From: Moniliophthora roreri
Taxonomy: Eukaryota; Basidiomycota; Agaricomycetes; Agaricales; Marasmiaceae
DNA length: 64,000 nt
Direction: 5' to 3'
NCBI GenBank assembly: GCA_001466705.2
Contig: LATX02000089.1
Coordinates: 496,001-560,000 of the forward strand
The first letter of the stretch is position 1. The number at the start of each line of letters is the position of its first letter. The notes under the pieces were generated by a model. The model was not told the DNA's origin. It made no database searches and worked only from the letters and a program-made list of their open reading frames with translations. Below, piece after piece: positions 6,087 through 51,252 of the stretch. The translations under genes and the position numbers were made by a program.

Positions 6087-6185
6087 GATGACGACGTTAG
6101 TGAGGTTTGTGAGAACGGCGTGAAGACGAAATGAGCTGAATAGGGACGGGGCGTGAGCTGGAGAGTACGGGCCAATATCCCAGGC

Positions 6186-6193
6186 TTTATATA
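6186..6193 (-). promoter_or_regulatory. TATA box of cerato-platanin 1
   Basis: TATATAAA on the minus strand lies about 100 bp upstream of the ATG at 6086. The other two cerato-platanin genes in this window have similar boxes 60-75 bp upstream. Confidence 0.55.
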
Positions 6194-6754
6194 TGTCTGG
6201 TGTAAAATGGGTGCGTAAGTTCATATGGTTGACATTCCCATGAAGGAGACGTTTCACCGATGTCGTTAACTTCGGCTATGAATATGACGCGCAGTGTTCC
6301 CAGTTGTGATGCTGAGACGCGCAGAAAGCCATAGAAGTTGGCGGAGCATTATTCAATTCCTTCGAATTCCTGTCCCCATTGGTATCATTACGTTGAAAAG
6401 GTCAGCGGAACTTGACGCGTACCAATTGCCAAGGTAGAGGTCTGTTCGCGTTCGCATTCGCGTTTTTCGCGATACTGATATCCAGAGAACTTCTTGAACA
6501 AAAACTTATCAGGCTGAAGTGGAAGTCCACGGAATATCTGGGATCCTGAGCCGTTAGGCGAGCTGAAGAGCTTTGATCGAGACACGTGCAACTGCCGTTG
6601 ACGGCGGCCACTCAGCACGTTTCAACCTTCAAACGTTTCATGTGAGCATGGTGAAGAGCGAAGTGAACATTGGGGTTTCACATTAATCATTAATGAATGT
6701 CGAACCAGTGCACTACATAGGGAGAATTGACGAATTTCGTTAATTACCAAGAGC

Positions 6755-12313: not shown

Positions 12314-12796
12314 CTAGGCGTTGTTGCAGTCCTTGCCGGTGTCGAAACCACAGCACGAACCGTCAACCTCGTACGCGTCATCAAGTGTGACGGTGCCCTT
12401 GTCGTAACCCTCAGAGGTGCCGTTGACCCTTGTAAGAGCCTTGACCGCATTGGTGGAAATAACGAATAAGCCTGGGCGGGCAGTATTGTCCACAAGGGTG
12501 ATATAGGCCGAGTTGTCTCTGTAGATGAGCTTGTAGCACGCTCCACAGCCTTGTGAGTTGTACGAGGCCGCGTTGCCAGCGCCTACGTTGTCAAAGTTGG
12601 GGATCCTACCCAGAACGTCGTAGCCCCTGGTGACGAGGCCATTCTGGCCACCACCGCAAGCAAGGGGCTCAAGGGGTTGGTTGCGGTCCTGGTATATATC
12701 GTTATATGAGAGGGTAAAAGGGGTAGGACCAGGGGTTTGGGCAACGGCGACGGAGGCGGCAAGGCCGAGAGAGAGGAGAGTGGTGAAGACCTTCAT
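12314..12796 (-). CDS. cerato-platanin-like secreted protein 2 (divergent)
   Basis: This is a single-exon gene of 160 aa. The signal peptide is MKVFTTLLSLGLAASVAVAQ. The mature part has the family blocks FTLSYNDIYQDRNQ, NGLVTRGYDVLG, FDNVGAGNA, GCGACYKL and STNAVKALT. It is clearly diverged from the copies at 5.7 and 28.3 kb. There is no GFNVAQ motif (the site reads GLFVIS), and the C-terminal tail has extra cysteines (SCCGF, DCNNA) and lacks the terminal CGL. It is likely secreted to the wall or medium. It could represent a separate cerato-platanin subgroup with a different disulphide pattern. Start chosen at the ATG before the signal peptide. Confidence 0.85.
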   Translation of the reverse strand: MKVFTTLLSLGLAASVAVAQTPGPTPFTLSYNDIYQDRNQPLEPLACGGGQNGLVTRGYDVLGRIPNFDNVGAGNAASYNSQGCGACYKLIYRDNSAYITLVDNTARPGLFVISTNAVKALTRVNGTSEGYDKGTVTLDDAYEVDGSCCGFDTGKDCNNA

Positions 12797-12860
12797 GACA
12801 ATTGTACGAGTGCTGGAGCACTGAGTGGACGATGTCACAAATGAAGAGCGTCAGGTGAAG

Positions 12861-16029: not shown

Positions 16030-16600
16030 TAAAACTACAGACCAAATAAGGTTAGTAATCTAAGACTAGGCGCCATTGCGCCTAGGGAGGAGTAAACAAG
16101 GTAGGTAGGCCGAGATAAAAATTGAAGCAAGAGAAACATAATTTGGTGGATCGATAAATAAAACACACATATAGGCGAATCGGGAAAGATACAAATCAAG
16201 GATTGGGAGTCGAGAAAGGAATAAAGTAACAGGGAGGTCCAACGAACGCCACACGCATGACTATGACAGCACCCACCACCGCACAGCCGAAAAGAAAACG
16301 AAAAGAAACCAAGGTTGTATAATCATGCAACAGATCCCGAAAACGCTCGACACCGAATACCATCCCGTGCGGCTCACCTCATCTCTAGTCCCGCTATATC
16401 GTCTGGATGATTGAACCACTGTCCAAAGTCTCTCTCGAAGTTGATATCTCCGTCAGGTCTGAACAATCCTGTCTCAAAGTCCTCCAACTGGCTCGCAACG
16501 CTCTGCATAAACTCGTTCGAAAACATATCCGCCACTGAAACAGTTCGTTGTGGTACAGGTGGGCGTAGTGCTGGCCGATGTTGTGGCGGTACATACTTGA
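16030..16600 (-). repeat. duplicated 3' end of the LisH gene (copy A)
   Basis: This block is a diverged copy of 19143-19745. Both share the 3'-flanking sequence with AGGCGCCATTRCGCCTAGGG (an inverted-repeat element, possibly transcription-end related), several tracts of UTR, and the last 70 or so codons of the LisH protein. Differences in the coding part are mainly synonymous. Confidence 0.85.
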
Positions 16601-18128
16601 AGCTGAAATAAAATGCTTCGGCATAGTCCCAAAACCCAAGCTTCTGCCCCAATCTCAGCAGGTCCTTCATTACCGTTTCATCGACTGGATTATCTGCTTT
16701 CTGAAAGTGCTTAATAGTCTCCGTTACCTCGGGAACGACCTGCGAGTACGAATCCAGATGCTGAAGCAGCCGCTTCACAGCTAGAGAGTGCCGCCGGCTG
16801 AGCATCTCCAGCATGAAGATACCTGCGTCAATCGAGTCCTTTCCAGGTACCCACACTCCATCAACCACTCGTTTCCAGATCGGACATGCTACATTGATGA
16901 GACGTTAGCTCGACCGCTCTACAGAGAGTGAAATGGCTTACTCCATATCTGACATGTTTGGAGAGATGGACATGCTGTTCCCAGACGAATCACCATTGCA
17001 TGTTCATCTCCCGTGTACCTTGTGATGGCATGATCAGGAGTGGAGTTGAAGACCAGTACTCGTAGCCGACGGAACGAAGAGATGTTCTTGCACATGAGCT
17101 CTGCAAGATCCAGGTCCTGTTGAAATGCTCAGTGACATAGCGTAAAAGAGGATGATCACTAACAAAATATGTCGATAGGCGAAGCGACACCACGTCCGAG
17201 AAGCACGTCAACAACCCCTTGAGTACAGAATCTTGTTTCTGGTAAAACGTGAGGTCCAGGTGGAGCTCGTCTACGTTGAGAGGACGCCATGCGTTATTCA
17301 CATCGGACAGAACCAAGTCTGGCGCGTCCCCCGAAGAAAACGAAAGTGCAAGCTGGCTCAGAAAGGGTGCGTCGACCCATGACAACAAGGGCATGATTAT
17401 TTGCGCCGGACCGTCAAGTTGCTTGAGCGCAAATTTTCCACCTTCTTGTCGTTCATTGTCCAGCTGGGTATCTTCCTTATCGGGATACGTCAATTGGGCA
17501 GATCGCAATGTATGTCTGTGTCTGTCGAGGAACGCATAAAGAACCACAGGCTGAATCGGTGTAGCAAAGTGTACTGATGTGAGATCGGGGAAAGTGATGT
17601 TCTGGATCATGATGTGGACCTTCCGAGCATAGAGTGAGCTTGGAGAGCATGTTATCGATAATTCCTCGATCCCCCGGCATGTCGATAAGGTTTCTGCGAT
17701 GTGTTTGAAGAATCTTGGATAGGGTTTGGTGGTACCGAGCTGCGATCTATCGACTTATTAGAATGACGGGGGAGGAAGGATACTAAGACTCACGGTAGTA
17801 CAACACTGAAGATCCTCACCGACTGTGCTGCCAGAGGATTGGATCTCAAGGTCTTGCAGCACTTTAGTGCCTGGTCAACCCCCTCCAACACAACTTCGCG
17901 ATAAAGCCTTTGAGTCCCCAAGATACGAAATGAAAGACTGACGCAGCATAGCTGTTTCTTGGTCGATAACGTACTGAAATCGGCGATTTTTCCCCATATT
18001 TCGGGTGGAATGTCCAACGTGGATGATCGTGGAACGCGGTCCACTTCCAAATTAGGGCAGACGTGTGGTCGTCGTCTGTGTTGGTGACGTAGGCGGCTGC
18101 GTTGTCCACTGTCCATCTCAAATCGCAA
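16374..18128 (-). CDS. F-box protein fused to a LisH-protein C-terminus
   Basis: Exons were assembled on the minus strand. The first contains the F-box (LDIPPEIWGKIADFSTLSTK, about 18030) and ends IFSVVLP. The next begins SQLGTTKPYPRFFKHIAETL and runs to LRLSTYF. A 49-bp intron follows (donor GTTAGT near 17168, acceptor near 17120). The next begins DLDLAELMCKNISSFRRLRV and ends TCQIW. The last begins TCPIWKRVVDGVW. The body looks like the LRR-poor sensor part of basidiomycete F-box proteins, which act as SCF ubiquitin-ligase substrate receptors. After GQKLGFWDYAEAFYFSFKYV the sequence switches to about 70 residues nearly identical to the end of the LisH protein (SVADMFSNEFMQSVASQLED...LEMR-stop). 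The start is uncertain: a longer frame from 18271 reads well but is out of phase with the F-box. Confidence 0.72.
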
Positions 18129-19150: not shown

Positions 19151-19745
19151 ACCAAATAAGAGTAGTAATCTAATACTAGGCGCCATTACGCCTAGGGAGG
19201 GGATATGGAGTAAACAAGGTATGTATGCCGAAACAAAAAAAGCGGGAGAAACATACTTTTGGTGAAGGGGTAGGATTGATAAATAAAACACACAGGCGAG
19301 TCAGAAAAGATACAAATCGAGAATCGGAGAGTCGAGGAAGGAATAAAGAAACAAAGGAGGCCCAACAAACGTCGTACGCGCGACTATGACCGCACCCGCC
19401 ACCGCACAGCCAAAAAGTACCTTCCATCCAAATTAATAAATCCACGAAAAGCAAAGGATGTATAATCACGCAAAGATTTTGGACAGATCCCGGAAACGCT
19501 CAGCATCAGCAGCAAACAATACCTCGTACAGCTCACTTCATCTCCAATCCCGCTACATCGTCTGGATGATTGAACCACTGTCCAAAGTCTCTCTCAAAGT
19601 TGATATCTCCGTCAGGCCTGAACAATCCCGTCTCAAAGTCCTCCAATTGGTTCGCAACGCTCTGCATAAACTCGTTCGAAAACATATCTGCCACAGAAGT
19701 AGTTTGTTGTTGTACAGGCTGCGGTGGTGCTGGTTGATGCTGCTG
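19143..19745 (-). repeat. 3' end of the LisH gene (copy B, parental)
   Basis: This is the parental partner of 16030-16600: the same UTR words and the same terminal protein module, here in continuity with the full LisH gene. Confidence 0.85.
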
Positions 19746-22366
19746 AAGTGGTGTCCCCAGAAGCGCTGACGGTGAAGGCGCAGTCATGTTCGGTTGTGGT
19801 GTTGGACCTTGACTCTGCGGTGTAGATTGTGGATTTGGCGGAGGAGGAACAGACTGCGATAACACTGGCGTAGACGATGCCGTGCCCGCCGTGTTCGTTG
19901 GTGTATGTCCTTGACCTTGACCAGGCATGTTCCTCGGACTTCCGTCGGGTTTCGCTCCGTCCTTTGACGGATCCTTGCTCATCCCGGGACTCTGTGGCGG
20001 CGGCATCATCATCCCTTGCGATCCAGGTTTCCTACCGGCTGTGTTGAATGGACCGCCTTCTACGCCAGTGCCAGGTACATTACTTTGTGGCATCGCATGT
20101 TTATGCAGACTATGCATTTGAGTTCGATACGCTTGGGCACCCTGTGGTGCTTGGGCAGGATTTGTGAACCCAGGATTAGACATAGGCGGTCTACCCATCA
20201 TGTTAGCACCAGGACCGGGACCCGGGACTGGGCCTGGTGCTTGACCTGGTGCTTGCGCTGGATAGTTCATTGGCGACTGTTGTTGATTCTGAGGCGTATT
20301 ACCTTCCATGGGTGACCGTCTCCGGCGTTTCGGATCCGGAGGAGATGAGGTATTGTTGCTATCAGCCTGGAAACGGTGCTAGTTAGGGAATCTTGAAGGA
20401 CGAATGAGAGAATTCATTACCTCTTCACCTGTGGCGGAATTGCGCTTGCCACCAACTCTTCCTCTCTGCTGCATCTGCGGAGTTTGACCTGGACCAGGCG
20501 GACCGGGGGGCTGTGTTTGTGGAGGCCCCATACTTGAGGGACCTGGACCCATACTTGGATTGCCCTGAGGTAGCGGCATGCCAGGTTTATTAGCGTACTG
20601 ATTCCGATATATGGTCGCGATACGACGCTATGAATCAAACTAAGTTTGCCAGACATGTAATCGAAAAGCCTAGAGCTCACCTTCTCATCCATCGACATTG
20701 CATTTAGGTCCTTGTCGCCGAAACCAGCGTCTCGTCTTACCGTTAACACAAGTCCCTGTGGTATGGTGCTCAAAGTATTCTGCACCTCAGCATCTGACAT
20801 GATTCCACCAGGCATGCCCATTCCACCCATCATATTGCCACCCATACCCATATTAGGACCCATCATGCCACCTCCCATCGGATTGCCACCCATTGGACCA
20901 CCGCCCATCATACTACCTCCCATACCGCCCATAGGACCTCCACCGGGCCCAGGGGGTTGTCTGGAACCTAGTAACGGACTAGGATTCATCGGATTCATCA
21001 TGCCCGGCTGCCCAGGTCCTGGATCTCCAGAACGACTAGGACTTCTTCCAACACCCATTCCAGGACCAGGACCACCTCCCATACCGCCCATGCCCATACC
21101 GCCCATGCCCATAGCAGGATTGCCCATATTATTCATCGGATATCCAGACCCAGGTCCTTGCTGACCCTGTTGACCATGCGCACCTTGGGGCGGCGGTAAC
21201 ATCCCACCTGGCTGTTGTGTCTGACCAGGTGCGCCAATTGAGCCTCTCTGTCCCATATGGGGTGAAGGCCCGGGACCCATCATACCAGGCGCCTGCGACC
21301 CACCAGGACCCCGCTGCTGTGGAGGTCCTTGAGACGATCCAGGAGGCGAATGCGCCATAGTCGGGCTGGCAAATGGTTGTTGACCAGGCTGTCCAGGACG
21401 AACGTTAGGGTTATTGTTTTGCGGTTGGTTGGATGCGCCATGTGGTCGTTGAGGGAATTGTTGATTTGGTGGCTGGCCAGGACCGGGACCAGGACCACCA
21501 GGACCAGGATTAGGCATCCCATTCATGAGATGAGGCGGAGGCTGCTGCGGTTGTTGGCCTGGCTGGAATCCTGCTGAACCAGGCGGTGGTACGGAACCTG
21601 GACCAACGCCATTTGGCATCCCTTGTCTCGGCATACCTGTAGGACCAGGCGGAGGTATTCCATTAACGTTGACGCCGGGAGCTGGATTGGGTCCTGGCCC
21701 TTGACGAGCTGCCATACCATTGGGAACCGCTGGGCCTCCTGCCATAATCTGAGGCTGACTCTGACGCTGGGCATTTGCCTGACGCATTGCATTTTGTTGG
21801 TTTTGGTTCTACCGGGTACATCCATCAGCTTGGAGATTGCTAGGCAATAGCGATACGGCGCACCTCGATGTAGATCATTGCATCTTCTGTACCCTGCTTG
21901 TTACTCTTTGCAGAGAATAATACCCAAAATACACTCCACCACCTGTCGTAACTATGAATTAGAATCCAGCGAAAATCCAACCCGTCCACGCACTCAAATA
22001 ATAGCCCCTGCCTCGCGTTGATCGGTGGTTGAGAGTCTGGTGGTATCTCTGCCTCCGCTAACAGCTCTTTCGCAGTCTTCCTGAACCCTCTCTTCGAGCA
22101 ATAATCATAAATATAAATGTTGAACCTAAAAACACATAGCAATCGGTCAGCACCACGTATACCACTCCCTCAGTCAGTCGACCAGAGACGTACATCTTGT
22201 CCCCCTCCCAGGAAAGCCCCCCTAAATTTGGGTCATTTGAGCCAGTCGAAGATGACGATGGTCCTGGCTGTATCGTCGCTACCGATGATGGATGTTGCTG
22301 AGAGCCTGGAGGTCCTGGCGGCTGTGACAAGGGTGGAGGCTGCTGCTGTCCCGGGACAGAGGCCAT
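19533..22366 (-). CDS. LisH-domain transcriptional regulator (Flo8/Som1-like)
   Basis: This is a nuclear regulator candidate. The first in-frame ATG (22366) starts MASVPGQQQPPP, a Gln/Pro-rich leader. After WEGDKM an intron is removed and the LisH helix pair follows: FNIYIYDYCSKRGFRKTAKE. Then come AEIPPDSQPPINARQGLLFE and, in the next exon, WWSVFWVLFSAKSNKQG. The LisH motif followed by WWSVFW is the signature of fungal Flo8/Som1 and of plant LEUNIG. A very long Pro/Gly/Met/Gln-rich region follows (about 21815-19750), including runs of GGMGM/GGPMGG (about 21120-20800). A basic DPKRRRRSP motif (about 20325) is a plausible nuclear localisation signal. The acidic C-terminal module SVADMFSNEFMQS...GQWFNHPDDVAGLEMK is conserved in the chimera at 16.4 kb. 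Family members act in morphogenesis and cAMP-linked control. Confidence 0.85.
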
Positions 22367-28233: not shown

Positions 28234-28299
28234 GTCACTGACATCTTCTGTGGTGTTACATCCCTACGGTCATTCCCAACCTAATTCCTTGTCATCATC

Positions 28300-28880
28300 A
28301 TGAAGTTCATTGCTGCTATCGCCATCCTCGTCACGTCCGTCGCTGCACTCAGCTTCAGGCGCAACAACGACGGCCAGACTTACAAGTTGCGATACATCAC
28401 TGAATACGACGACCCCGACTACCCCTTGAGCAATGTTGCTTGCACGAGCGGAGAGAATGGCCTGCTCCACAAAGGCCTCAACAAGGTTAGGGATATACCC
28501 ACTTCCGCTTCCAATGTCAATGTCTATGTTGGGGGCGTTCACGCTGTCGAGGGCTTCAATTCCGAGGAATGTGGCTCGTACGTCCCAATTACCGGCCTTC
28601 TTTTTTTTCTTCTCAGACTGAATTCTGTGTACGCTAGATGCTGGGAAGTCTATTACCAGGACAAGAAGATCCGTGTTGTCGCTATTGACACTGCTCAAGA
28701 CGGTTTCAATGTCGCGAAGAAGGGTATGGATGAGCTGACGAACGGACAGGCGTACAATTGGGGTGTCGTTGATGTTACAGCGAGGAAGCTTCAACCGGCA
28801 GACTGCGGACTCAGTGAGTGACTCCTATCTTCAAGGCAGTATCTGGGGATACTAACGATGTAATTCTGGCAGGCTCTTAA
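28300..28880 (+). CDS. cerato-platanin family secreted protein 3
   Basis: Three exons: 28300-28577, 28638-28813 and 28873-28880. The first intron splits the CGSCW motif: GGC TC joins ATGCTGG to give Gly-Ser-Cys-Trp. The second leaves only LSS-stop. The protein has a signal peptide (MKFIAAIAILVTSVAAL). The conserved blocks are YKLRYITEYDDPDYPL, NGLLHKGLN, ECGSCWEV, DGFNVAKKGMDELTNGQA and a terminal DCGL. Cysteines sit at the four cerato-platanin positions. It is closest in motif layout to copy 1 (5.7 kb) but lies on the other strand and has introns that copy 1 lacks. The mature start has an unusual Arg-Arg-Asn-Asn stretch. Confidence 0.92.
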
Positions 28881-30364
28881 GATAGTAACTCGATCATTAC
28901 TCATGGACAGATTCATTAACGTTGTAAACGTCCTTCATGAACTGTAGTACTCCAGTACTCTACGGACTAATATATAGCCAGCACTGTTCAAGAAGAAGGG
29001 ATGAAAAGAAGTTCGCAAAAGTTGTAAACTGACTGACTTGTCCTCTCAACATCTACACTAATGCTCATAAGCACCCTCTGTCCTTCCGGTGACCATGTAC
29101 TTCACATAAGCGGTTGGAATTTGCAGGTTCCTGTTTACGGCCAATTCGCGCATTGCTGAGTTGGGAAGAATATTGTGTGGCCTCGTAGAGGCACTCGTAA
29201 ATCCAATCCCATCTTTCTACGCGTTTCAGGAATTTGTTACATTTCTAGACTGATTGCCCGTTGAGTACAGCATCATCATACTGCATGGCAGCGGCGATTC
29301 TATTGTACTTGTTCGACGGACCTCGTCGTAGCGCACCACTGCCAAATCCCTAAAGTTGACGAGGAGATTCTTCAGACAGTCATCTGGAAGCCCTCCGTCT
29401 TTACGCATTTTGCGTGACCTCGGAGATCGCCTCTGTCAACTAAGGACTAAGGATAGTAAACTACCTCGGCGAACCTAACTGTGCCCATGTAGATACATAC
29501 AGTAAAGACGAACTCTACCAGTATACTAATGAGCGAGAAAAAAAAAAAAAGCTGACAGGCACGTCGTGTCACGGTAAAGTAACGTAACGTAACTCTACTG
29601 AGGGGCCTATCGAGCGAAAAAAAAATAAAAATGGTGAGGTGGAGGGGTCAAGGAGCGATGGTTTGTACGCGTAAAGCTTGTCCTGTGTCGAATCTGAATG
29701 ACACCTGTGTGGCAAAGTCGGACATGGGGGAGTGTAGAAACTGGTAGTGTCCGACAATGTATCCGGCTGGGAGCGGAGTCTACACGACGAGGTGAGTCGA
29801 AACGGATGTGGAAAGCACGAGCTTGATGCTCAAATGCATGTAGACGAGCTTGGATTGTCTGAACTTCATGCAGCAGCTTCGTATGCGTCGCACGTTGCTT
29901 GCGAGCGAGTCTGAAGCGAGCACATACTGCATTCGAGTCGCGGGAAGGTAGACAAGGGGAACCAGGAAGGATGTCCAGTCGGCAACGGCGACGACGCTTT
30001 GGATGGGGTGATTTTTGAAGAGCTCCTAAGAGCTTAGGATGAGGACGAGGGCGTTGGAAAGGAGGATGTTTGATTGGATTTCCAAAAATGGAAATTTTAT
30101 ACATGTTGTGCGATTGAAAGGCGTCCGAAACCTCACTAGGAGGACCTAGTGGTACCGAGCAGACGAACTGTCGACGATGCTGAGTGCCCGAAGCTCAACA
30201 GAGGCTGGAACGCAACGACAGCCACGAGGATGGTCACGGTGGTGGTTGTTGTTGGTACCGCCTGTTGTATGACCCCGACAAATCATTATACTCAAGTTTC
30301 AAACTGTAGAAGACATTGATGAGCTCAATGTCGAACTAAAAAGGCAAGAGTGAATACCAGTCCC
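28881..30364. other. intergenic, one weak minus-strand frame
   Basis: A 165-codon open frame on the minus strand (30104-29607) is rich in Arg, His and Pro. Its middle is helical (about RKQRATHTKLLHEVQTIQAR) but it has no known domain. It may be an unknown gene or chance. The left flank of the copia element ends at 30364. Confidence 0.3.
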
Positions 30365-30632
30365 TGTTGAGACAGAACGGAGACGTAAAGCGCAGTGGAG
30401 TGTGCTCAACTCACATTTGTACGAGAGCTTGTTTAGAACCTTGAGGGTTGTAGAGGTGCGATGTGCAGAGTAGTCAATGTAAATTGAACTGAGGAATGTA
30501 GCTACATACATGCTTGCTTTTATACTACTCTNTACTTTGTAAGTTCCGTAGTTGATCACATACGCAAGTAATACAATAACTAGTGTTCCTAATGTACCTA
30601 GTTTAGTATAGTACAGGTACTGTGCTTCAACA
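30365..30632 (-). repeat. 3' LTR of copia element (gap inside)
   Basis: It begins TGTTGAGACAG and ends GTGCTTCAACA on the plus strand. The N at 30532 stands for 250 bp present in the other LTR (43333-43582). Adding this gives a full LTR of about 517 bp. Confidence 0.85.
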
Positions 30633-30645
30633 CTCCCCCTCACTA
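30633..30645 (-). other. polypurine tract
   Basis: The minus-strand purine run TAGTGAGGGGGAG lies immediately inside the 3' LTR, the usual plus-strand primer site of LTR elements. Confidence 0.75.
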
Positions 30646-30674
30646 AGTTTGTGATAAACTTTGTAGTGATTGAG

Positions 30675-31699
30675 CTATATGGAGGAATCAGTCTTAAAGA
30701 ATGTAAGGCCGAGAAATTCTCTGTGGCGTTGAAATTTGTCCCAAGGTAGATTCTTCGTCATAAGATCCGCGGGTTGTTGATTTGTGGGGATGAAGAATAC
30801 TTCTACTTTTTTCTTGGCAACGCATTCTCGAATATGGTGATATTTGATATCAATGTGCTTTGTTCGTTTTTCAGTAACTTGATTTTTACTGATGAAAATA
30901 GCACCTTGATTATCACTAAGCAATGGTAGTTTTGCTATAGGATATTCGATTTCAGAGAATAGGTTAATTATCCATTTGATCTGTCTAGCACAGTCAGATA
31001 AAGCCATGTATTCGGCTTCAGTACTGGATAATGCTATGGATTTCTGTTTTTGTGAAACCCAGAAGACTGGAGCACAAGCAAAGTTAATGAGATAACCTGT
31101 CTGTGAGACTCTAGTATCTTCATCTGTAGCCCAGTCAGAATCGGCATATGCTATGAAACCTTGTTCTCCTTGCTTATCTTTGTAAGTAAGAGAATATTTG
31201 CGGGTTCCAATTAGGTATCGAATGATGTATTTCACTTTGTTGAGATGCTCCTGAGTAGGATTTGTCCCATATTGCGAAAGTTTGATGACCGGAAAGGTTA
31301 TATCTGGTCGGGTACCTAAGCATAGATATAGAAGTGATCCGATCACTGATTGGAATTGGGATCTAATTGTAGAGTTCGCTTCTCCTTTATTAGCCGTAGG
31401 TTTGTAACCGGCAGGTAATGGAGTACGAGTGGGATTGGTGTTTTCCATACCAAAGCGTTTAATGATTTTCTCGAGATAGTCACTTTGATCAAGTGAAAGA
31501 GTACGTCGCTTTCGATCTCGAGTAATCCGCATTCGTAGGAATTCTCTAGGTTCGCCTAAATCTCTACATTCCCATATTTTCATGAATTCTTTCTTCTTTG
31601 AGTGAAGAAGGCTAGAATTTGAACCCATGAAAATCGCATCATCTACATATACAATGGCAATGATTATATCATTTCCACGTATAAAGTAATATACACCAG
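30675..31699 (-). CDS. copia RT C-terminal part and RNase H
   Basis: The open frame runs from the gap at 31700 to the stop at 30675. The catalytic YVDD box of reverse transcriptase is intact at 31649-31638. It is followed by LGEPREFLRMRITRD, the KYIIRYLIGT helix, and RNase H with DSDWATDEDTR, SSTEAEYMAL and DNQGAI acidic residues. It ends just before the polypurine tract. This is the most intact pol end in the block. It belongs to the same polyprotein as the gag frame but is separated from it by rearranged sequence. Confidence 0.85.
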
Positions 31700-31700
31700 N

Positions 31701-33658
31701 ACAGTGGTTTTGTGGGTAACTCTAGGAGGGCTGGCTCTGGAATGTGCTTGAGTTCCTGTGCTTTAGGATTGGGGAAGTAAGTAGGAACTGGACAATACTT
31801 GCAGTGTACCAGCTTATATTTCTGACCCAAAGTAGCAGTGTAGCAAGAAAATGAAAGATTTTAATCAAAAGAAAAGGCTCACTGTAGCCATGGCGATCAT
31901 TCAAGAATAGATGGGTTGATACAATAACCTGGTGATGTTACAAAAGTTTGATAAAGTAAGGAATCGTGATGGATATTAGGAAAAATATTGAAAATATGTT
32001 CAGAAACTGAATTGTCACCCTGTAAAAGGGCTTGTAGTGACCTCCCTACTGTAGTAGGAGTCTCATGGGAGATCACAATATGTGACTCCTCTACCAAAAA
32101 GCCACTTTGTTCTCCTCATCTTCTACTTCCTTTACTGAAGCACAAAAAGCTGATAATATGTCGAACCTAGAAAAGACCCACTTTTCTTCATTTTACACTA
32201 CTTTTGGATTGGAAGACTTTAATATGACATGAGATAATGGGTAATAAGGACTAGAGTGAGCCCAGTCTGCTAGTCATTGCCTTAGAGAAGCTATGGAACC
32301 TTGGAAAGTACAATGAGCTATGTGATACGCTATACAGAGGTGTCAAAGCTGTACTTTCTGACTTATCTATGTATCAGATCCAAAACAGATCACTCCCAAA
32401 ACCTGTAGAGAACCTAACTATGGCCCAATGAATGTATTGGCTAGTTAACCAAGCTCTCAAAGTGCTATCAATGGGATTTTAATTTCTATTTTACTTTTCT
32501 ATGACATCTGCAAAGTGCAACCTGCAGTCAAACAGTACAGAGGTACTTAGAGGAGACATCAAAACAGAACAGCAACTTAGAACAGGAACGATCACAGAAC
32601 GATCATCCTCCGAAGTCAATATACAGATCAAAGTCAAAGCAGGCAACCTCTTAATAAAGAGTGCACCAGCGGCTAAACAATACGAGATAAACTAACTAGG
32701 TACAAAGTCAGCTTGGAAAGAAAGAAATCACTTCCAAAGGACATCCACTACCTACAGACAGATACAATAAGAAGCAGAAGAATATCTAACACATAAGGAG
32801 TCCTAAATAAGACCAAGCGTGCATTGTCGAAGGAGATAGGAACAGTAACAGCATGTTCCGAACTTGGAAACCTTGGCATCTAGGCCACTGTCAATGTGTG
32901 GATACTAGAAAGGGAAATGCTGTCAAGAGATAGGACAGATACAGTCATCTGCTCATAGATACCTGACTTAGAAAAGAGAAAATACAAATTATAGAATCTA
33001 GAACGCCTGGAAATGTAGATACCCATGCAGATATGGCTGGATACTCTAGTAGCCAGACTCCGTGACATCTGAGTATTCCCTCTTTTAGTGTCTCAGTCAC
33101 TCATTTATCATTTTCTGAATTATTGGACATTATTTATAATTTTCTGTAGAATATATTCTTTGGACCATATATAAGGACAGCTAGATATTTGTACCTACTC
33201 AAGTAACTCTGCCCCCTCTGATTGTGAATATATGACAAGTTTGTTTGGTATATAAATTTGTGTGCCATTCCAGTTTTGCTTCCTCACTACAGGCCCTGGA
33301 GATTGGTCCTGAGTGACTCCAGAGAGATAGAAATCTGATAACGAACTTGCGTCATAAGAGATAAGAGTAACATCTTGAGTGCGTTATAGCACTTAGTTAT
33401 CTTGAAGAAGTCTTGAACTCTGTAGGGTCAGACTATATTAGCTATTGAGTCTTTGTATGGGACTGTAGCTCTTGTGTTTGTGCTTTGTGCACCATGTTCT
33501 TTGTGTTTTGTGCATGTGTTTGTGATATAAAACATTTCAAAACCATATATACTCCTCTGGAAGTGAACACTTTGAAGTAGAACACTTCAATAAGAGAGAA
33601 TCAACCTAGCTAAGAGTTTTGTTAGCATTCTAAGTGCAGTAACTCTGATCACGTCAAT
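31701..33658. other. foreign AT-rich segment between two assembly gaps
   Basis: This 2-kb block is not copia coding sequence and is bounded by N on both sides. It has no long frame. Its right part resembles LTR or promoter DNA: a CATATATAAGG box at about 33170, T/G-rich sequence (TTTGTGTTTTGTGCATGTGT, about 33500) and AACACTTCAATAAGAGAGAATC near its end. It may be a solo LTR or leader of another element, or a misplaced contig. Confidence 0.5.
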
Positions 33659-33659
33659 N

Positions 33660-34101
33660 CATAAGATCCGCAGGTTGTTGATTTGTGGGGATGAAGAATA
33701 CTTCTACTTTCTTCTTGGCAACGCATTCTCGAATATGGTGATATTTAATATCAATGTGCTTTGTTCGTTTTTCAGTAACTTGATTTTTACTGATGAAGAT
33801 AGCACCTTGATTATCACTAAGCAATGGTAGTTTTGCTATAGGATATTCGATTTCAGAGAATAAATTAATTATCCATTTGATCTGTCTAGCACAGTCAGAT
33901 AGAGCCATGTATTCGGCTTCAGTACTGGATAATGCTACGGATTTCTGTTTTTGTGAAACCCAGAAGACTGGAGCACAAGCGAAGTTAATTAGATAACCTG
34001 TTTGTGAGACTCTAGTGTCTTCATCTTTGCTTATCTTTGTAAGTAAGAGAATATTTGCGGGTTCCAATTAGGTATCGAATGATATATTTCGCTTTGTTGA
34101 G
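33660..34101 (-). pseudogene. second RNase H fragment of copia pol
   Basis: A near-identical copy of the RNase H stretch at 30759-31125, with a few substitutions. It has an internal deletion that removes the DSDWATD acidic block (34020-34030). It is flanked by gaps and is not an intact gene. Confidence 0.8.
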
Positions 34102-34102
34102 N

Positions 34103-34989
34103 TAGCGCTTGGATATCCCAATCCTCAAGAGCGGCTAGTGCAAGTAATACGCGAACGGTTTCAAAGCGTACTACAGGAGAGAACAATTCGTCATAATCTA
34201 TTCCTTCGACTTGTGAGAAACCTTTTGCTACAAGTCGTGCCTTATAACGGCCATCTGTTTTGACGTCAAAAACCCATCTGGATTTTATCGCTTTTCGACC
34301 TTGAGGTAAATCTACAAGTTTGTAAACGTTACGTTCTTGTAGTGATTTGAGTTCGTCATGACATGCAGCCATCCATTTCTTCTGTTCATCTTTTGACAGA
34401 GTTAGGATGTCTTTGTATTGCCATTGACATACGTTGTCAATTGACAATGCTGATGCCATAATGTAATCAAGGTAACGAACTCCCCCTTCCTGAGAAAGAA
34501 TTTGTACATAATTGACCACTTCATCATCAGTCTGAGGTGGAGTTCGATCAATTTCTATATCATTATGATCTTGTTCCATTTCATCCTCATTTGACTGTTG
34601 TATTTGATGTTCAGCAGGTGGAATTTCCTGCTCATGGTCACGACTACTACCTTGTATGAATTCTTGATCAGGACTATCACCTTGATCATTAGAATCAGGT
34701 AAGTTGTTATATGTACGCAGACGTAATCTATCTCGGATAGGCATACGACCCATTGCGTCTCCATACCGCTGTGGTACACGAGTCTGTCTTTTAGGACGAC
34801 TTTGTTGATGTTGACTTGGGTCAAACATCTGTACCCTTCGTCGCATTCTCCTGTTTATATTATTTATTTCAGGATCTATTGGGTTTTGCGGCGGTGCAGT
34901 ATTTTTAGGTCGTGATTGATCCTCACCATCATTCTGGTTATGATGATGATCCACAGGATCATTACCTCCGTTGGGATGATTAGGTTGAG
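34103..34989 (-). pseudogene. copia linker and RT N-terminal fragment, copy 1
   Basis: Encodes the acidic Pro/Asp/Asn-rich linker and the RT start ([16 protein letters not shown], then [22 protein letters not shown]). It is cut by gaps at 34102 and 34990. Compared with copy 2 it differs by a few percent. Confidence 0.8.
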
Positions 34990-34990
34990 N

Positions 34991-36522
34991 GACGAATCCT
35001 TGTGGTTGTTCCATGTAAATCTCCTTGTCAAGTTCGCCATAGAGAAAGGCTGTTTTGACATCTAGCGCTTGGATATCCCAATCCTCAAGAGCGGCTAGTG
35101 CAAGTAATACGCGAACGGTTTCAAAGCGTACTACAGGAGAGAACAATTCGTCATAATCTATTCCTTCGACTTGTGAGAAACCTTTTGCTACAAGTCGTGC
35201 CTTATAACGGCCATCTGTTTTGACGTCAAAAACCCATCTGGATTTTATCGCTTTTTGACCTTGAGGTAAATCTACAAGATTATAAACACTGCATTCTTGT
35301 AGTGACTTGAGCTCGTCATGACATGCAGCCATCCATTTCTTCTGTTCATCTTTTGACAGAGTTAGAATGTCTTTGTATTGCCATTGACGTACGTTGTCAA
35401 TAGACAATGCTGATGCCATAATGTAATCAAGGTAACGAACTCCCCCTTCCTGAGAAAGAATTTGTACATAATTGACCACTTCATCATCAGTCTGAGGTGG
35501 AGTTCGATCAATCTCTATATCATTATGATCTTGTTCCATTTCATCCTCATTTGACTGTTGTATTTGATGTTCAGCAGGTGGAATATCCTGCTCATGGTCA
35601 TGACTACTACCTTGTATGAATTCTTGATCAGGACTATCTTCTTGATCATATGAATCAGGTAAGTTGTTATATGTACGTAGACGTAATCTATCTCGGATAG
35701 GCATATGACCCATTGCGTCTCCATACCGCTGTGGTACACGAGTCTGTCTTTTAGGACGACTTTGTTGATGTTTCATCCTCATTTGACTGTTGTATTTGAT
35801 GTTCAGCAGGTGGAATTTCCTGCTCATGGTCACGACTACTACCTTGTATGAATTCTTGATCAGGATTATCACCTTGATCATTAGAACCAGGTAAGTTGTT
35901 ATATGTACGTAGACGTAGTCTTTCTCGGATAGGCATACGACCCATTGCGTCTCCATACCGCTGTGGTACACGAGTCTGTCTTTTAGGACGACTTTGTTGA
36001 TGTTGACTTGGGTCAAACATCTGTACCCTTCGTCGCATTCTCCTGTTTATATTATTTATTTCAGGATCTATTGGGTTTTGCGGCGGTGCAGTATTTTTAG
36101 GTCGTGATTGATCCTCACCATCATTCTGGTTATGATGATGATCCACAGGATCATTACCTCCGTTGGGATGATTAGGTTGAGGGAAATCAGGATGATCGTC
36201 ATCATCATCATTTCCTCCCCCTTGATCGTGATTTTGATGACCGTCATCATCATTATCCGATCGTGGTCGATTAATACCAGTAAAAGGAATAGATAAGATT
36301 CCATTGGTTGATTGTAAGGTTCGATCAACTGAATTAGACGAGTACGGAAAATCTTCTTCATCGAAGTCTGCTTGAGCAGCCGTAAATATCGTCTTATCCT
36401 GTCGCATAAACCGATATCCTTTAGTATTAGGAGCGTAATCTAGAAATGTCATACGTTCCATTTTCTTTGAAAGTTTGTTCTTGCGTTGTTCTTTATGAAT
36501 AAAGACATACGCTGAACATCCT
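34991..36522 (-). pseudogene. copia linker and RT N-terminal fragment, copy 2
   Basis: Same segment as copy 1, extended to [20 protein letters not shown] and, upstream, to the MERMTFLDYAPNTKGYRFMR linker start. A 232-bp direct duplication (35541-35772 repeated at 35773-36004), not at an N, shifts the frame by one base and breaks the polyprotein. Confidence 0.8.
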
Positions 36523-36523
36523 N

Positions 36524-39500
36524 TTCAGCAGGTGGAATTTCCTGCTCATGGTCACGACTACTACCTTGTATGAATTCTTGATCAGGACTATCACCTTGAT
36601 CATTAGAATCAGGTAAGTTGTTATATGTACGTAGACGTAATCTATCTCGGATAGGCATACGACCCATTGCGTCTCCATACCGCTGTGGTACACGAGTCTG
36701 TCTTTTAGGACGACTTTGTTGATGTTGACTTGGGTCAAACATCTGTACCCTTCGTCGCATTCTCCTGTTTATATTATTTATTTCAGGATCTATTGGGTTT
36801 TGCGGCGGTGCAGTATTTTTAGGTCGTGATTGATCCTCACCATCATTCTGGTTGTGATGATGATCCACAGGATCATTACCTCCGTTGGGATGATTAGGTT
36901 GAGGGAAATTAGAATGATCGTCATCATCGTCATTTCCTCCCCCTTGATTGTGATTTTGATGACCGTCATCATCATTATCCGATTGTGGTCGATTAATACC
37001 AGTAAAAGGAATAGATAAGATTTCATTGGTTGATTGTAAGGTTCGATCAACTGAATTAGACGAGTACGGAAAATCTTCTTCATCGAAGTCTGCTTGAGCA
37101 GCCGTAAATATCGTCTTATCCTGTCGCATGAACCGATATCCTTTAGTATTAGGAGCGTAATCTAAAAATGTCATACGTTCCATTTTCTTTGAAAGTTTGT
37201 TCTTGCGTTGTTCTTTATGAATAAAAACATACGCTGAACATCCTGGTGTTCGGAAATAAGAGACATCAGGTACTTTCTTACTATAGATTTCGGTTGGAGT
37301 TTTCCATCTTTTTCCGCAAGAGTACGAATTGAACGTTCGACTCTTCCTTGCTGTTGATGTATATGAGGAGCTGAGTTTCGCATTTGAATTCCATTATCTT
37401 TAAGATATGTTTGGAACTCATTTCCGAAAAATTCTCCACCATGATCGGTTTGAACACATTTAATTATTTTACCAGTTTGCTTTTCGGTTAGGGCACAAAA
37501 GCGTTTGAAGCTGGTAAGTGTTTCAAATTGATTTTTAGTTCTTTGATGATAGATCCATCCTACTGAGGAGTGGTCATCGATCAGAACTAATGTGTAACGA
37601 TTTTGGTGGTAAGAATTAATAGGAAATTCCTTAATATCCATATGAATGAGTTCTAGGATATTTTCTTTACGCTTTTGAGAACTGTGGTAAGGTTTAGATG
37701 CTGTTCCTCCTTCAGCACATCCCTTACACAAAGACTTTTTAGATCCTTGTTTCTCAATGGAAAATCCTTTGCAATGCTTCATACAGTTTGTTAATACACG
37801 GTAGGGTATATGACCAAACCTGTTATGAGCTATTACAGGATCAGTTGATTTAATCTTGAAAGCAAGAATGGTAACTGCTTCATTCTGTTTAACAGAGGAA
37901 GCATTTAGGTACGTGTACCCATCTCTTTCTGGTTTCGCGAATAGCGACATAAAGAGTTTACCATTAGCTTTCGTAATTATAGAGGTTTCTGGGAACGAAT
38001 ATTTAATATCGTAACCATTTACGATATATTTATTCCCAGCTAGAAGTCTATGATTTGCTTTAGGCCAATAGAACACCGGATAAAGTTTGACCGTATGGGT
38101 TTCTCCAAGTGAATTGGTATGACGAATGATTACTGTTCCTTGATGAGTTATGACATCCGATCCAGTGACTCCAATGATTTGCTTGGGTCCTGTAGGAATT
38201 TCATTTAACTCAAGGAAATCGGACTTAAAAGGCGTTATGTGATTGGTTGCAGCAGTATCAAGAGCCCATTCGTTTGTTTGTGGTTCTATAGATACAACAT
38301 TTTTATCACTAATTTTAGTCATCATACATTGTACAATGTTACTATTTACAGAATTAGAAAGAAATTGTTCATCGAGCTCTGATAGTGGCTCGGAATCAAT
38401 GTTCATTTCTAGTAATTCATTAGTGATGCTGCTCTTAAGATCAATTTGATCATACCAATCGTAGTAGTCCGCTTCGTTATGAACGTAATCATTATAATTT
38501 TCGTCCCAATCTTCTTTATCAAAGTCTTCCATATTCAGGTTCTTCCCTCCATTTTTCCCTTGAGAATCTTTATCATCAAGAGGAACAACATCCACAATGT
38601 TGATATCAACACGAGCTTGGATGTTTGAAGAACCTTGAATAAATTCGGGAACTTCCGGTTGAGGATTATTGACCGTTATGGAAGAAATGTTGATTCCCAG
38701 ATCCGGCATTACTGGTTTGGGAGGCGGTGATGGTGCCTCAATATCAATATCGGGGATCTCGAGTGTGTCTCCTTTCAGACGATAAGGAGTATGAGGTCGA
38801 ACAGGTTTGGGTTGGAAGAGTTTCCTATCCCCATAATGTTCTAGTACCATATTGCGGGCTTCCTTTTTGGTGATTTTCCTAAAAGTGTTTTCCCCAACAT
38901 TGAACTCGTAAGGAGGTGGAGTCGGTTCTTTGCCAAATTGGAACATTTTGTCACCAATTTTGACTTGTGGCAAAAGATTAGACTGGATTGTAGGGAAACA
39001 TTTGGAAATATTACCAAAGAAGTTTTTGGTAGTTTGCCGGTTCTTTTCTAATTCTTTTTGAATTGCCGCTGATTCTTCCTTGGATTTGATCCGGATATCA
39101 TCAGCCATAGTTGCTGATCGATAGGGTCTTTTCCCCATCCGTTTGTCAATGACATCAGGGTGTTTAGCTTGGCAGGCCGGTGAGTCACATCGGTGCTCGG
39201 CAGCTAATCCCTTGTCTTGGAACATTTGGGCGATCTTCTTACGCTGTTCCTGAAGTTCCTTTTCGGACTTCTTGACAATAGGGCGTTCTTGTTTTGGTTT
39301 CGGAGGAAGAGTTGCATTCCAAGGATTTTTGGGATTAAGGGAATCCCAAACTTTGTTGTTCTTTTCCTTGTTTAACCATGTGTCGGCATAATCCTTCTCC
39401 TTCTTCCAAGGGTCTTTAAGGAGAATCGGATCGTCTGCCGAAGAAAGAGCTTCCGTAAATGGCTTTTTAATAGATTTGTTGTTAAAGCCGCGTGGATTAC

Positions 39501-42500
39501 GTTTTGGAGGGAAGCCTTCCTGAACAGAGTTAAACATGATTGGGATGCAAGTAGCAGCGACTGGCCAATTATCAAGATGATGTGGATAATTGCATGTGAC
39601 ACAGAAGACTGTTTTGAAGTCTTGGTTCAGTTTGGGGGTTGGTGCTCTGGATGGATTTGGTGTATTCCAGTCAATATAGTCAACAGGATGATCACCAAAT
39701 TTGAATCGTTCACCTGCTTCAATCCCAGGGTTAGTTGGGTCTTCATGAACGTATTTTCCTGGAGCGATTTGATTGAATTTGTACTCCCTCTTACTAAGGT
39801 ATGTGATATGCTTTGGTAGTCCACTGGTACAGCATTGGCAATCTGCTTCACAAACTGCTGAAGGGTGACGATGGAATTCCATCTTGGCATAATTCCGCAT
39901 GTAGAGATTATGCTCTTTTGTCACAACACAGTTTAGGATCTCGACGAGTGGTTCGATCGGATCACGGAGTCGGAACAGAGTATTTCTGATCCGAGTGAAG
40001 AAGATCCAGTACCTGTCACCAGTGTCATCATGATCGGCCATTTGCCAGAGACCCATGCCACAAAATTCTGTATGGCGTTCATCTCGCCAAGTACATTTAT
40101 GACAGGCTTCTGAGCAAAAAGAGATTGGAGTGGAATGAGGGGCGAAGGAAGTCGATTGGGGGTACTTTGCATATACGTCCAATGCATCCAAGAAGTCAAC
40201 AATGGCGGGTTGCTTCTTGTAATCATGTCCGAGTTGTTGAGCTCTATTTCGGATATAATCCTTTTTGGTTTCTATTAAATCAAGTATGATTTTTGCAAAT
40301 CGATGTGATGCAAAAAGTGTTGAATCAATAGATGGATTATTGTTTAGAAGCTCGATGTGGAATTTAACATTCTCGGNCTTACTAAGGTATGTGATATGCT
40401 TTGGTAGTCCACTGGTACAGCGTTGGCAATCTGCTTCACAAACTGCTGAAGGATGACGATGGAATTCCATTTTGGCATAATTCCGCATATAGAGATTATG
40501 CTCTTTCGTCACAACACAGTTTAGGATCTCGACGAGTGGTTCGATCGGATCACGGAGTCGGAACAGAGTGTTTCTGATCCGAGTGAAGAAGATCCAGTAC
40601 CTGTCACCAGTGTCATCATGATCGGCCATTTGCCAGAGTCCCATGCCACAAAATTCTGTATGGCGTTCATCTCGCCAAGTACATTTATGACAGGCTTCTG
40701 AGCAAAAAGAAATTGGAGTGGAATGAGGGGCGAAGGAAGTCGATTGGGGGTATTTTGCATATACGTCCAATGCATCCAAGAAGTCAACAATGGCGGGTTG
40801 CTTCTTGTAATCATGTCCGAGTAGTTGAGCTCTTCCTCGAATATAATCCTTTTTGGTTTCTATTAAGTCAAGTATAATTTTTGCAAAACGATGTGATGCA
40901 AAAAGTGTTGAATCAATAGATGGATTTTCGTTGAGAAGCTTAATATGGAATTTAACATTCTCGGGCATTGGAATCATTGTTGGATCATATTGAGCCTTCG
41001 GAATTCGGGCCTGAATTTTGGCTTCCATGTGTCGCGACCATCTCCTCATGGCACGACCATGGTCCGATTTGTGAGGTTGTTTGTTCTCGAATCTATTAAT
41101 AGGATTTTGAGGAACAGTGGACTCCAAAGTTTCGGTTGGAATAACATCTCTTACCTGGTTAGGGTATTTGTGCGTCATAAGATGTTTTCCGGATGGAAGA
41201 TTACCGAAAATATGTTCAAATGATTCTGACAGAAAAATATCTCCTATGTTGACTTCATCCTTAGTAATAGGAGGAGTCTTGGGAGGAATTTTATCCATCT
41301 TAAGGACAGTGAAAGTTTTGCTAAGCTGAAAATCTCCCCGGAGAAAAGCATATGCTGTCTCATCGATGGGAAGGTGTACTAGTGCTGCTTTTTGGAGAAT
41401 TTTCTGCCTAGCGAAGGAATGGGAATCCATATTGTAGCATTGTTTGCAGACATACCAAGTTTTGCAATTTCGTCCAGTTGTGAAGATGCCATAGACAGTC
41501 TTATCTGGACTAGTGCAAAAATGGTTGATGCATTTAGTTGGAACTTTGCCATCATCGGAAGGTTTTTCCTCTTTGGGAGGTTGAGGTTCTTCCTTTTGAG
41601 GCAAGTCTGTGATCTCAGCCATCATAACTGAGATTGCTCCATTAGGCTTTTTCCCTTTTCCTTTCTTGTTCGACTTCTTCTTGTTATTCTTCTTCCCATC
41701 AGATTTTTGTTGATTTTGTTGGGGTTGCGCAGGCTGTTTGCCTTTGTTCCCTTTATTCCCAGAGTTCTGGTTTTGATTATTTGGTTTACCAGAATTTGGA
41801 TTAGGATTGCGAGGACGGAACTTCTTCTGTCCATTCCAATTCGGGCTCTGTCCAGTGTATCGTTGGACACCAGAGATCCGAGTGGCGTAAGCTGCAACCC
41901 CATCCATATGTCGCCTATTGTATTCTTGTTTGATGAAAGGGAGGATATTGTCGAAGCTAAGATCCTTCCCTTTGTTGGAGACAAACATCTGGGTCTTAAC
42001 TCCTTCATATGACTTGGGAAGAGAGTTAAGTAGGAACATTGCCTGGAAATTGGATGGAACGGGGAAATCATTTTCAGACAATTTCGCAACACATTGTCTG
42101 ATGAGATTGGCGCTATGATCAGGATTTTGGCCTTCGGCAGTACATGCCAAGACAAGTCCTTGGAAAAAGGTGAAAATTTCCGGAAGGCTTGGAACGTCAT
42201 ATTCAGCTTTCAAAGCGTCCCATGTTTCTTTAGCAGTATCTTTGATAATCCACTGCAAAGTAGGACTCAATTTAAGCTGGAAAAGGCCAAGTGCTTGGGC
42301 GTTGGAGGTTTTCCATTCTTTGACGACTTCCATATCAGGAGTAACGGTAGAAGCACCTTCACCGGTAGTCACAGGCATCGTATTGGTAAGGGCATAAGCT
42401 GCTTTAGCCAAATTGAGGTATGCCAAGACTTTGCGCTTCCATTCTCTGAAGTCGTCACCATTAAAGACTGGAACCACTGATAATTCCAATGTATTGCCAA

Positions 42501-42651
42501 CGGAAGTATCAAATACTTGAATTGGTTCAAGTAGTTTGAGAGGGTGGTAACTGTAAACCGGAATGCCGATACCATCATCCGAGTTTCAAATTCGGACAGT
42601 GTTATCAGCGAGAGAGACTTGGGGGATACGTTGTTGGTTGGAGTTAGACAT
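36524..42651 (-). pseudogene. copia gag-protease-integrase polyprotein with defects
   Basis: ATG at 42651 (MSNSNQQRIPQ). An in-frame TGA at 42588-42586 interrupts the first 21 codons; from 42489 a frame of 1,772 codons runs on. Gag begins VVPVFNGDDFREWKRKVLAY, typical of copia gag. About 900 residues of Cys/His-rich sequence follow, then the aspartic protease (WALDTAATNH, about 38260). The integrase has an HHCC-type finger (HNRFGH...HCKGF...CKGCAEGG, about 37835-37690) and catalytic residues in HMDIKE, QTDHGGEF and QGRVERS (about 37640-37340). The Asp/Asn-rich linker toward RT ends at the gap at 36523. The frame shifts near 37180. A 586-bp segment is duplicated across the gap at 40377. Confidence 0.85.
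39791..40963 (-). repeat. 586-bp segment duplicated across the gap at 40377
   Basis: 39791-40376 and 40378-40963 are near-identical, with scattered substitutions, and abut a single N. The duplicated protein part contains the CSEACHKCTW and CEADCQ cysteine motifs. Two different element copies or alleles were probably joined end to end. Confidence 0.85.
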
Positions 42652-50495: not shown

Positions 50496-50503
50496 TATAT
50501 AAA
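50496..50503 (+). promoter_or_regulatory. TATA box of repeat-peptide precursor gene
   Basis: TATATAAA lies 54-61 bp upstream of the ATG at 50557, in AT-rich context. Confidence 0.6.
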
Positions 50504-50556: not shown

Positions 50557-51252
50557 ATGCTGGTCCATTCATACCTCCCCGCCGTTCTGTTATCCCTTGT
50601 AGCTGCTGCAACTGCAGCACCCGTAGCCCTTGTGAGCAAGATTTAATTCGTTGCGTGTGTGTGTGCTGTGGTGCTGAATAATCGTCCCCCGGTGTTCCAG
50701 GAGAATGGCGCTGCGGTGATAGCCAGAGGTGCTGAGGTGGAGAGGCGAGTCGTTGGGGTATGTCGCAGTGGTTTATTATTTTATACATTCATAACTCAAC
50801 GTTTTGTATTGTAGGGACGAGGGCTGCGTCTGGGTGAGGCGTCACGGAAACGTGAAGCAGAGCCTGGTAATCCTCACGCAATAACTTGGAGAGAGGCGGA
50901 GCCGGAGCCTGGTAACCCTCACGCGATAACTTGGAGAGAAGCAGAGCCCGAGCCCGGCAACCCTCATGCGATAACTTGGAGAGAGGCGGAGCCCGAGCCT
51001 GGTAACCCTCACGCGATAACCTGGAGAGAAGCAGAGCCCGAGCCCGGCAACCCTCATGCGATAACTTGGAGAGAAGCAGAGCCAGAAGCAGAGCCCGGTA
51101 ACCCCCACGCAATAACTTGGAGAGAAGCGGAAGCAGAGCCAGAACCAGGTAACCCTCACGCTATTACCTGGAGAGAGGCAGAACCAGAACCAGAACCAGA
51201 GCCCGGTAACCCTCACGCTATCACTTGGCGCGAGGCTGAAGCAGAATCATAA
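50557..51252 (+). CDS. secreted repeat-peptide precursor, alpha-factor/KEP-like
   Basis: Three exons join in frame: 50557-50631, 50701-50757 and 50815-51252, giving 189 aa. Residues 1-21 or so are a signal peptide (MLVHSYLPAVLLSLVAAATAA). A short pro-region follows and ends with Lys-Arg (50848-50853), a Kex2 site. From there to the stop the protein is eight copies of GNPHAITW. Each is followed by Arg and preceded by Glu-Ala/Glu-Pro dipeptides: EAEP once, EAEPEP four times, EAEPEAEP, EAEAEPEP and EAEPEPEPEP. The tail is REAEAES. Yeast alpha-factor has the same logic: a basic cut, dipeptide trimming by a Ste13-type aminopeptidase, and Kex1 removal of C-terminal basic residues. The predicted product is the octapeptide GNPHAITW. 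Its role (signal, pheromone-like, or RiPP core) is unknown. There is no Cys and no CaaX end. Confidence 0.9.
50854..51228 (+). repeat. in-frame peptide-coding tandem repeat, 8 units
   Basis: Basic unit 45 bp (15 codons), with later units of 51, 51 and 57 bp through added Glu-Ala/Glu-Pro codon pairs. The octapeptide codons vary between units at third positions, yet the peptide is identical in all eight. Confidence 0.95.

What the first reader, a model, noticed from the sequence alone, without database searches (positions are those of the whole stretch)
50557..51252. Alpha-factor-like secreted precursor with eight identical octapeptides in a basidiomycete
Seen in sequence: a signal peptide, a Lys-Arg site, then eight perfect GNPHAITW copies in a 189-aa three-exon gene. 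Established: S. cerevisiae alpha-factor and ascomycete KEP/RiPP precursors are built this way, while basidiomycete mating pheromones are CaaX lipopeptides. Inference: this encodes a new secreted octapeptide signal or a RiPP core. I know of no basidiomycete peptide with this sequence.
Basis: partly seen in the sequence, partly recalled or inferred. Interest (0 to 1): 0.92.

Follow-up and report, generated by a model that had tools for sequence, protein, structure and literature searches.

The report
Alpha-factor-like peptide precursor in cacao fungus
A crop-infecting mushroom relative carries an intact-looking gene for a secreted protein built of eight identical eight-residue peptides, laid out like the yeast mating-pheromone precursor but with single instead of paired basic residues at the joints, so the published search rules for such genes would pass it by.

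Summary
Window 50557-51252 (+) encodes a 189-aa three-exon protein: hydrophobic signal-like start, pro-region, one Lys-Arg, then eight identical GNPHAITW copies. The copies differ only at third codon positions (7 of 8 vary; 0 of 16 others). Seven of seven internal spacers are runs of Glu-Ala/Glu-Pro dipeptides, the STE13 signature. The organism is very probably Moniliophthora roreri; its genome shows kexin-like and DPPIV-type genes. Unusual here: all eight cores end in Trp-Arg, not a dibasic pair, so the protein fails the rules of two published surveys, and two searches of 5.8 billion proteins found no relative. No UstYa or STE3 match lies on this contig, which argues against a dikaritin-type RiPP or a B-locus pheromone. 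Best reading: precursor of a linear secreted octapeptide for communication or biotic interaction. Expression, cutting and function are unproven. A new variant of a known kind.

The parts
50496..50503 (+). TATATAAA, TATA-box-like element about 54 bases upstream of the start codon
   Evidence: read from sequence; inference
50557..50631 (+). exon 1: start codon and signal-peptide-like hydrophobic stretch
   Evidence: hydropathy peak 2.42 for residues 7-17; no signal-peptide predictor was available
50632..50700 (+). intron 1, 69 bases, GTGAGC...TTCCAG
50701..50757 (+). exon 2: pro-region
50758..50814 (+). intron 2, 57 bases, GTATGT...TTGTAG
50815..51252 (+). exon 3: end of pro-region, RKR site, eight GNPHAITW copies separated by R + (EA/EP)n spacers, tail REAEAES, stop
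50848..50853 (+). the only Lys-Arg (residues 56-57), kexin-type site before the first spacer
   Evidence: hit at contig position 546848, which is window 50848
50854..51246 (+). tandem array, period 45, longer where spacers carry extra dipeptides

Best explanation
The gene encodes a secreted multi-copy precursor. The signal peptide sends it into the secretory pathway; a kexin cuts after the Lys-Arg, and a kexin paralogue (or a yapsin-like aspartic protease) cuts after each single Arg of the Trp-Arg boundaries; a Kex1-type carboxypeptidase removes the Arg; a STE13-type dipeptidyl aminopeptidase removes the Glu-Ala and Glu-Pro pairs and stops at Gly-Asn; eight molecules of linear GNPHAITW are released per precursor. 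The peptide acts outside the cell, as a signal between hyphae or toward host or competitors. Shown: gene anatomy, silent-only differences among the copies, presence of the enzyme families in the genome. Inferred: splicing, expression, every cleavage, and the role.
For: Anatomy and eight identical cores with silent-only differences. Seven of seven internal spacers have even length with Ala or Pro at each second place, though they run to 6, 6, 6, 6, 8, 8 and 10 residues after the Arg; in-silico trimming by the stated rules returns eight octapeptides. Two kexin-like loci with subtilase and P domains (best PDB match yeast kexin, E 7.6e-69 and 3.5e-72), a DPPIV_N gene with a GWSYGG-bearing S9 exon, and 43 S10 carboxypeptidase matches (Kex1 not separated from vacuolar types). 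Precedent: agaricomycete KEPs with STE13 motifs and Trp-ending cores are processed to linear peptides, and some products of three Coprinopsis KEPs expressed in Pichia appear to end at single Arg (PMC9769878).
Against: No RNA or peptide evidence. A single Arg with Trp before it is not the kexin consensus (recalled), so the internal cuts are the weakest step. No homologue found, so conservation across species is untested; the database holds at least some Moniliophthora proteins, so this gene is either unannotated there, annotated with a very different length, or missed. The tail dipeptide ES breaks the XA/XP rule, though it lies behind the last core. The one DPPIV_N gene found has about 3.4 kb between two exons and a partial duplicate nearby, so its activity is not certain. 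Gene conversion could also keep copies alike.
Confidence: 0.72

Rival explanations
1. The protein is not cut at the single Arg sites and works whole, as an acidic Glu-Pro-rich repeat protein of the wall or surface, like trypanosome procyclins.
For: No dibasic site inside the repeat part; weak Pfam match to procyclic acidic repetitive protein, E 0.0025, 18.2 bits against a cut-off of 100.
Against: The match is far below the cut-off and looks compositional. The non-acidic octapeptide, not the Glu-Pro run, is the invariant part, and spacers vary in whole XA/XP dipeptides, which a structural repeat does not need.
Confidence: 0.13
2. A RiPP precursor of the dikaritin kind, with the cores cyclised after cutting.
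For: Same general precursor plan as ustiloxin-type KEPs (PMC7329392); the genome has 23 listed UstYa matches; in that survey 17 of 76 KEPs resembling basidiomycete STE13-type precursors did have a UstYa (DUF3328) gene nearby.
Against: 0 of those 23 matches are on this contig (the list may be a lower bound), whereas the published mean distance is 3.09 genes (abstract); the core has no Tyr (recalled as the usual target); neighbours recognised are a weak LRR-like protein, an N-acetyltransferase and a sugar transporter, though not every nearby frame was scanned.
Confidence: 0.06
3. A true mating pheromone of the alpha type.
For: STE13 spacer layout as in ascomycete alpha-factor.
Against: No STE2 match (whose controls rang nowhere, so absence is not shown), while the same kind of search gave 36 STE3 matches, none on this contig; M. 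roreri is described as asexual, with A and B loci of which B holds STE3 and a pheromone gene (PMC10468315, passages); no MF_alpha Pfam match at E up to 10.
Confidence: 0.04
4. A decaying or unexpressed gene, with the repeat kept alike by recent duplication and gene conversion.
For: No annotated relative; gene conversion could keep copies alike.
Against: Duplication alone would not give 61 silent against 0 replacement pairwise differences; both splice-site pairs, start, frame and stop look intact.
Confidence: 0.05

Closest known systems
Basidiomycete KEPs with STE13 signature (Le Marquer 2019 Fig. 7b; Pleurotus KEP 1091723; Coprinopsis KEP 490115)
   Same: Signal sequence, repeated short cores, XA/XP dipeptides after the cut site; the Pleurotus and Coprinopsis cores end in Trp
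   Different: Those were found by, or described with, dibasic sites flanking the repeats; here the eight boundaries are Trp-Arg with one Lys-Arg in front. GNPHAITW has 0 occurrences in the library; three papers hold the letters 'haitw' and are unrelated by title.
S. cerevisiae alpha-factor precursor (MFalpha1)
   Same: Leader, KR, then EA-type spacers before each copy (layout and recall)
   Different: No MF_alpha or MF_alpha_N match; single-Arg sites; different core; no STE2 found (without a positive control)
Dikaritin (ustiloxin-type) RiPP precursors
   Same: Secreted, repeated cores between protease sites
   Different: No UstYa match on the contig; the STE13 signature is absent in the ascomycete precursors of cyclic peptides; no Tyr in the core here
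Ustilago maydis Rep1 repellent precursor
   Same: Basidiomycete secreted precursor cut by Kex2
   Different: Rep1 lacks the STE13 signature (PMC6339444)

Membership tests
KEX2-processed repeat protein (KEP) | N-terminal signal sequence | tested here: inconclusive
   Hydrophobic stretch by hydropathy and by eye; no SignalP
KEX2-processed repeat protein (KEP) | At least four fragments after cutting at KR/RR (Le Marquer), at least three alike | tested here: not met
   Three fragments of 19, 14 and 132 residues after an assumed 20-residue signal; no KK; rule
KEX2-processed repeat protein (KEP) | At least three tandem repeats of 8 aa or more between dibasic sites (Umemura) | tested here: not met
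   Dibasic sites only at residues 40, 55 and 56, all before the repeats; rule
KEX2-processed repeat protein (KEP) | Repeated identical short cores | tested here: met
   8 of 8 identical
STE13-signature precursor (alpha-factor-like) | XA/XP dipeptides directly after each cut site | tested here: met
   7 of 7 internal spacers and the first one, EAEP; the tail after the last core is EA-EA-ES
Ascomycete alpha-factor (MF_alpha) | Pfam MF_alpha / MF_alpha_N | tested here: not met
   Neither listed at E up to 10 (HMMER's filters drop most weak matches)
Basidiomycete CaaX mating pheromone | C-terminal CaaX box | tested here: not met
   Protein ends REAEAES and holds no Cys
Dikaritin RiPP | UstYa (DUF3328) gene close to the precursor | tested here: not met
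   23 matches listed in the genome, 0 on contig C67
All of the above that release a peptide | Peptide released in vivo | not testable with these tools
   No RNA or mass-spectrometry data held

The most novel reading that the evidence does not exclude
A hidden class of fungal multi-copy peptide precursors cut at single-Arg (Trp-Arg) sites by a specialised agaricomycete kexin paralogue or yapsin, invisible to both published genome surveys because these demand dibasic sites; its peptides would be unrecognised secreted signals or host-directed peptides.
Probability: 0.3. Interest if true: 0.72.

Novelty: new variant of a known kind. Interest (0 to 1): 0.46.

Why it matters
Alpha-factor-like precursors in basidiomycetes have no established function (PMC9769878), and the two surveys that count KEPs require paired basic residues. 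A clean eight-copy case with only single-Arg boundaries suggests that such genes are being missed, bears on what agaricomycete kexin paralogues may have diversified for, and gives an exact peptide mass ([M+H]+ 895.4421) to look for in existing data.

Tried and rejected
Relatives: two protein searches, the whole protein (8000 candidates scored, none at E <= 1) and residues 1-72 (242 candidates, none at E <= 10), gave nothing. Both see only proteins of 0.55 to 1.75 times the length that share exact words. A control query from the same window (a cerato-platanin) found one M. roreri and one M. perniciosa protein (2 hits among 90 candidates), so the database holds at least part of this genus. The first search may have been crowded by low-complexity Glu-Pro proteins, which is why the second left them out.

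Paralogues in the own genome: the protein search gave three exon matches to the gene itself and two chance-level hits (E 4.2 and 5.2). The pattern for R-E-A-E-P-E-P hits five places, all in this gene, reversed-pattern control 0. The looser R-[DE][AP] x3 pattern hits 27 places against 15 for the control, 7 of them in this gene; the other 20 were read in the proper strand and none has a repeated core (L029 and L034 hold short EP or EA runs). The K-R-[DE][AP] x2 pattern hits 33 places against 35 for the control; 30 of 33 were read (3 gave no locus), one of them this gene; of the other 29 none has a repeated core (L047 has a short AK run, L057 one six-residue word twice). A first reading took minus-strand hits on the wrong strand; one search replaces it. 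Precursors with shorter spacers or other dipeptides were not looked for.

A bacterial promoter scan of the upstream stretch means nothing for a fungus. A Kex2 P2-specificity paper, PMC27903, is not held; passages of PMC2515848 say only that there is evidence for cutting with other residues at P2. In the two kexin-like loci the residues before the conserved His read DDT-H and EDH-H against DDY-H in yeast kexin: a lead on P2 specificity, not followed. No structure prediction was made.

Full report
What is there. The coordinates are exact. The three-exon model 50557-50631, 50701-50757, 50815-51252 gives 189 aa with eight identical GNPHAITW copies. Both introns begin with GT, end with AG and hold an in-frame stop, so the signal-like start and the repeats are joined only if both are spliced. 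A TATATAAA element lies about 54 bases before the start. TRF finds the array too.

Is it more than chance? The eight copies have seven distinct DNA versions. Variation falls on 7 of 8 third codon positions and on 0 of 16 first and second positions; among the distinct versions 61 pairwise differences are silent and none changes an amino acid. The internal spacers after the Arg are EAEPEP four times, then EAEPEAEP, EAEAEPEP and EAEPEPEPEP: lengths differ, always by whole dipeptides, always with Ala or Pro second. A composition-based chance figure for that alternation is 5e-12, but the units share ancestry and the figure is only a guide. The tail behind the last core is REAEAES.

Which organism. 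The window lies in a 59.4-Mb, 154-contig genome. A cerato-platanin encoded in the window is 99% identical over 93% of the query to a protein named for Moniliophthora roreri MCA 2997 and 55% to one of M. perniciosa. I take it as M. roreri, the frosty pod rot fungus of cacao; this rests on one protein.

How it would work. Cutting after Lys-Arg and after each Trp-Arg, removing C-terminal basic residues and then XA/XP dipeptides, returns eight GNPHAITW and two leftovers. The enzyme families are in the genome: two P-domain loci (counts from these searches are lower bounds) with subtilase exons nearest to yeast kexin, 43 S10 carboxypeptidase matches, and one DPPIV_N gene matching DPP4 structures. 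The last has its exon with GWSYGG about 3.4 kb beyond the preceding exon, with GTGAGT and CACAG at the borders, and a partial duplicate about 11 kb away, so a long intron rather than a break is likely but not proven.

The odd point is the cut site. All eight cores are followed by a single Arg after Trp; the only dibasic sites are at residues 40, 55 and 56. The published pipelines cut at KR/RR (else KK) and ask for at least four fragments, or ask for at least three repeats between dibasic sites. By those rules this protein fails. Yet some products of three Coprinopsis precursors expressed in Pichia appear to come from cutting after single Arg, and Coprinopsis and other agaricomycetes have three kex2 genes against one in the ascomycetes with knockouts, read by the authors as diversification. 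A kexin paralogue is therefore my first choice for the internal cuts, a yapsin the second. Both are inferences; yapsin genes were not searched for.

What it is probably not. None of 23 listed UstYa matches lies on this contig, none of 36 STE3 matches does, and STE2 gave none, in a search whose controls rang nowhere. Against that, 17 of 76 published KEPs resembling basidiomycete STE13-type precursors had a UstYa gene nearby, so the type as a whole is not free of RiPP candidates. Pfam gives a procyclin match far below cut-off and one insignificant DUF. Recognised neighbours are a weak LRR-like protein below its cut-off, an N-acetyltransferase and a sugar transporter; not every frame nearby was scanned.

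What is known. STE13-signature KEPs in Basidiomycota were described in PMC6339444 (abstract and sections 9, 15, 24 seen). PMC7329392 (abstract, sections 8 and 13 and passages) gives 5.30 KEPs per basidiomycete strain and lists Moniliophthora among the genera with one widespread KEP type, whose sequence I could not compare. PMC9769878 (abstract, passages, parts 1 and 2 of 3 of the results, discussion) detected such peptides, several with C-terminal Trp, and saw no phenotype in knockouts of six KEPs. A term search of the M. roreri genome paper PMC3948071 found 0 occurrences of Kex2, kexin and pheromone in the main text. GNPHAITW has 0 occurrences in the library. Listings for KEP papers and for basidiomycete alpha-factor-like or monobasic cases show none that is on this gene by its title; figures and supplements could not be read, so a listing there cannot be excluded.

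Verdict. A real, probably working gene of a known kind, with a variant cut site and a core not seen before in what I could search. The claim that it is without precedent in basidiomycetes falls; the claim that it works like an alpha-factor precursor stands as the best reading; membership of KEP as formally defined fails on the dibasic rule.

Noticed in passing
contig C68, 715965-732958 of the window's genome (L008-L012, L074-L077): The one DPPIV_N (STE13-like) gene found has about 3.4 kb between two exons, with a CCTCTAC minisatellite inside, and a partial duplicate about 11 kb away with nearly the same spacing.
   Followed up: partly
window 16374-16904 and 19533-20378: Two neighbouring minus-strand frames share an almost identical C-terminal stretch (SVADMFSNEFMQSVA...DFGQWFNHPDD); in the first it ends a frame that otherwise looks different, like a partial duplication onto another gene (by eye).
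   Followed up: no
window 5679-6275, 12314-12850, 28285-28821: Three cerato-platanin-like frames in one window (the last two confirmed by Pfam; the first by eye).
   Followed up: partly
window 30300-42585: Long stretch of Ty1/copia-like retroelement frames (by eye) with scattered single N bases; observed only.
   Followed up: no
contigs C113, C153 and others of the window's genome: 36 STE3 receptor exon matches in a fungus described as asexual.
   Followed up: no
L006 and L007: Two kexin-like loci differ at the residues just before the conserved His (DDT-H and EDH-H), a possible clue to different P2 preference.
   Followed up: no
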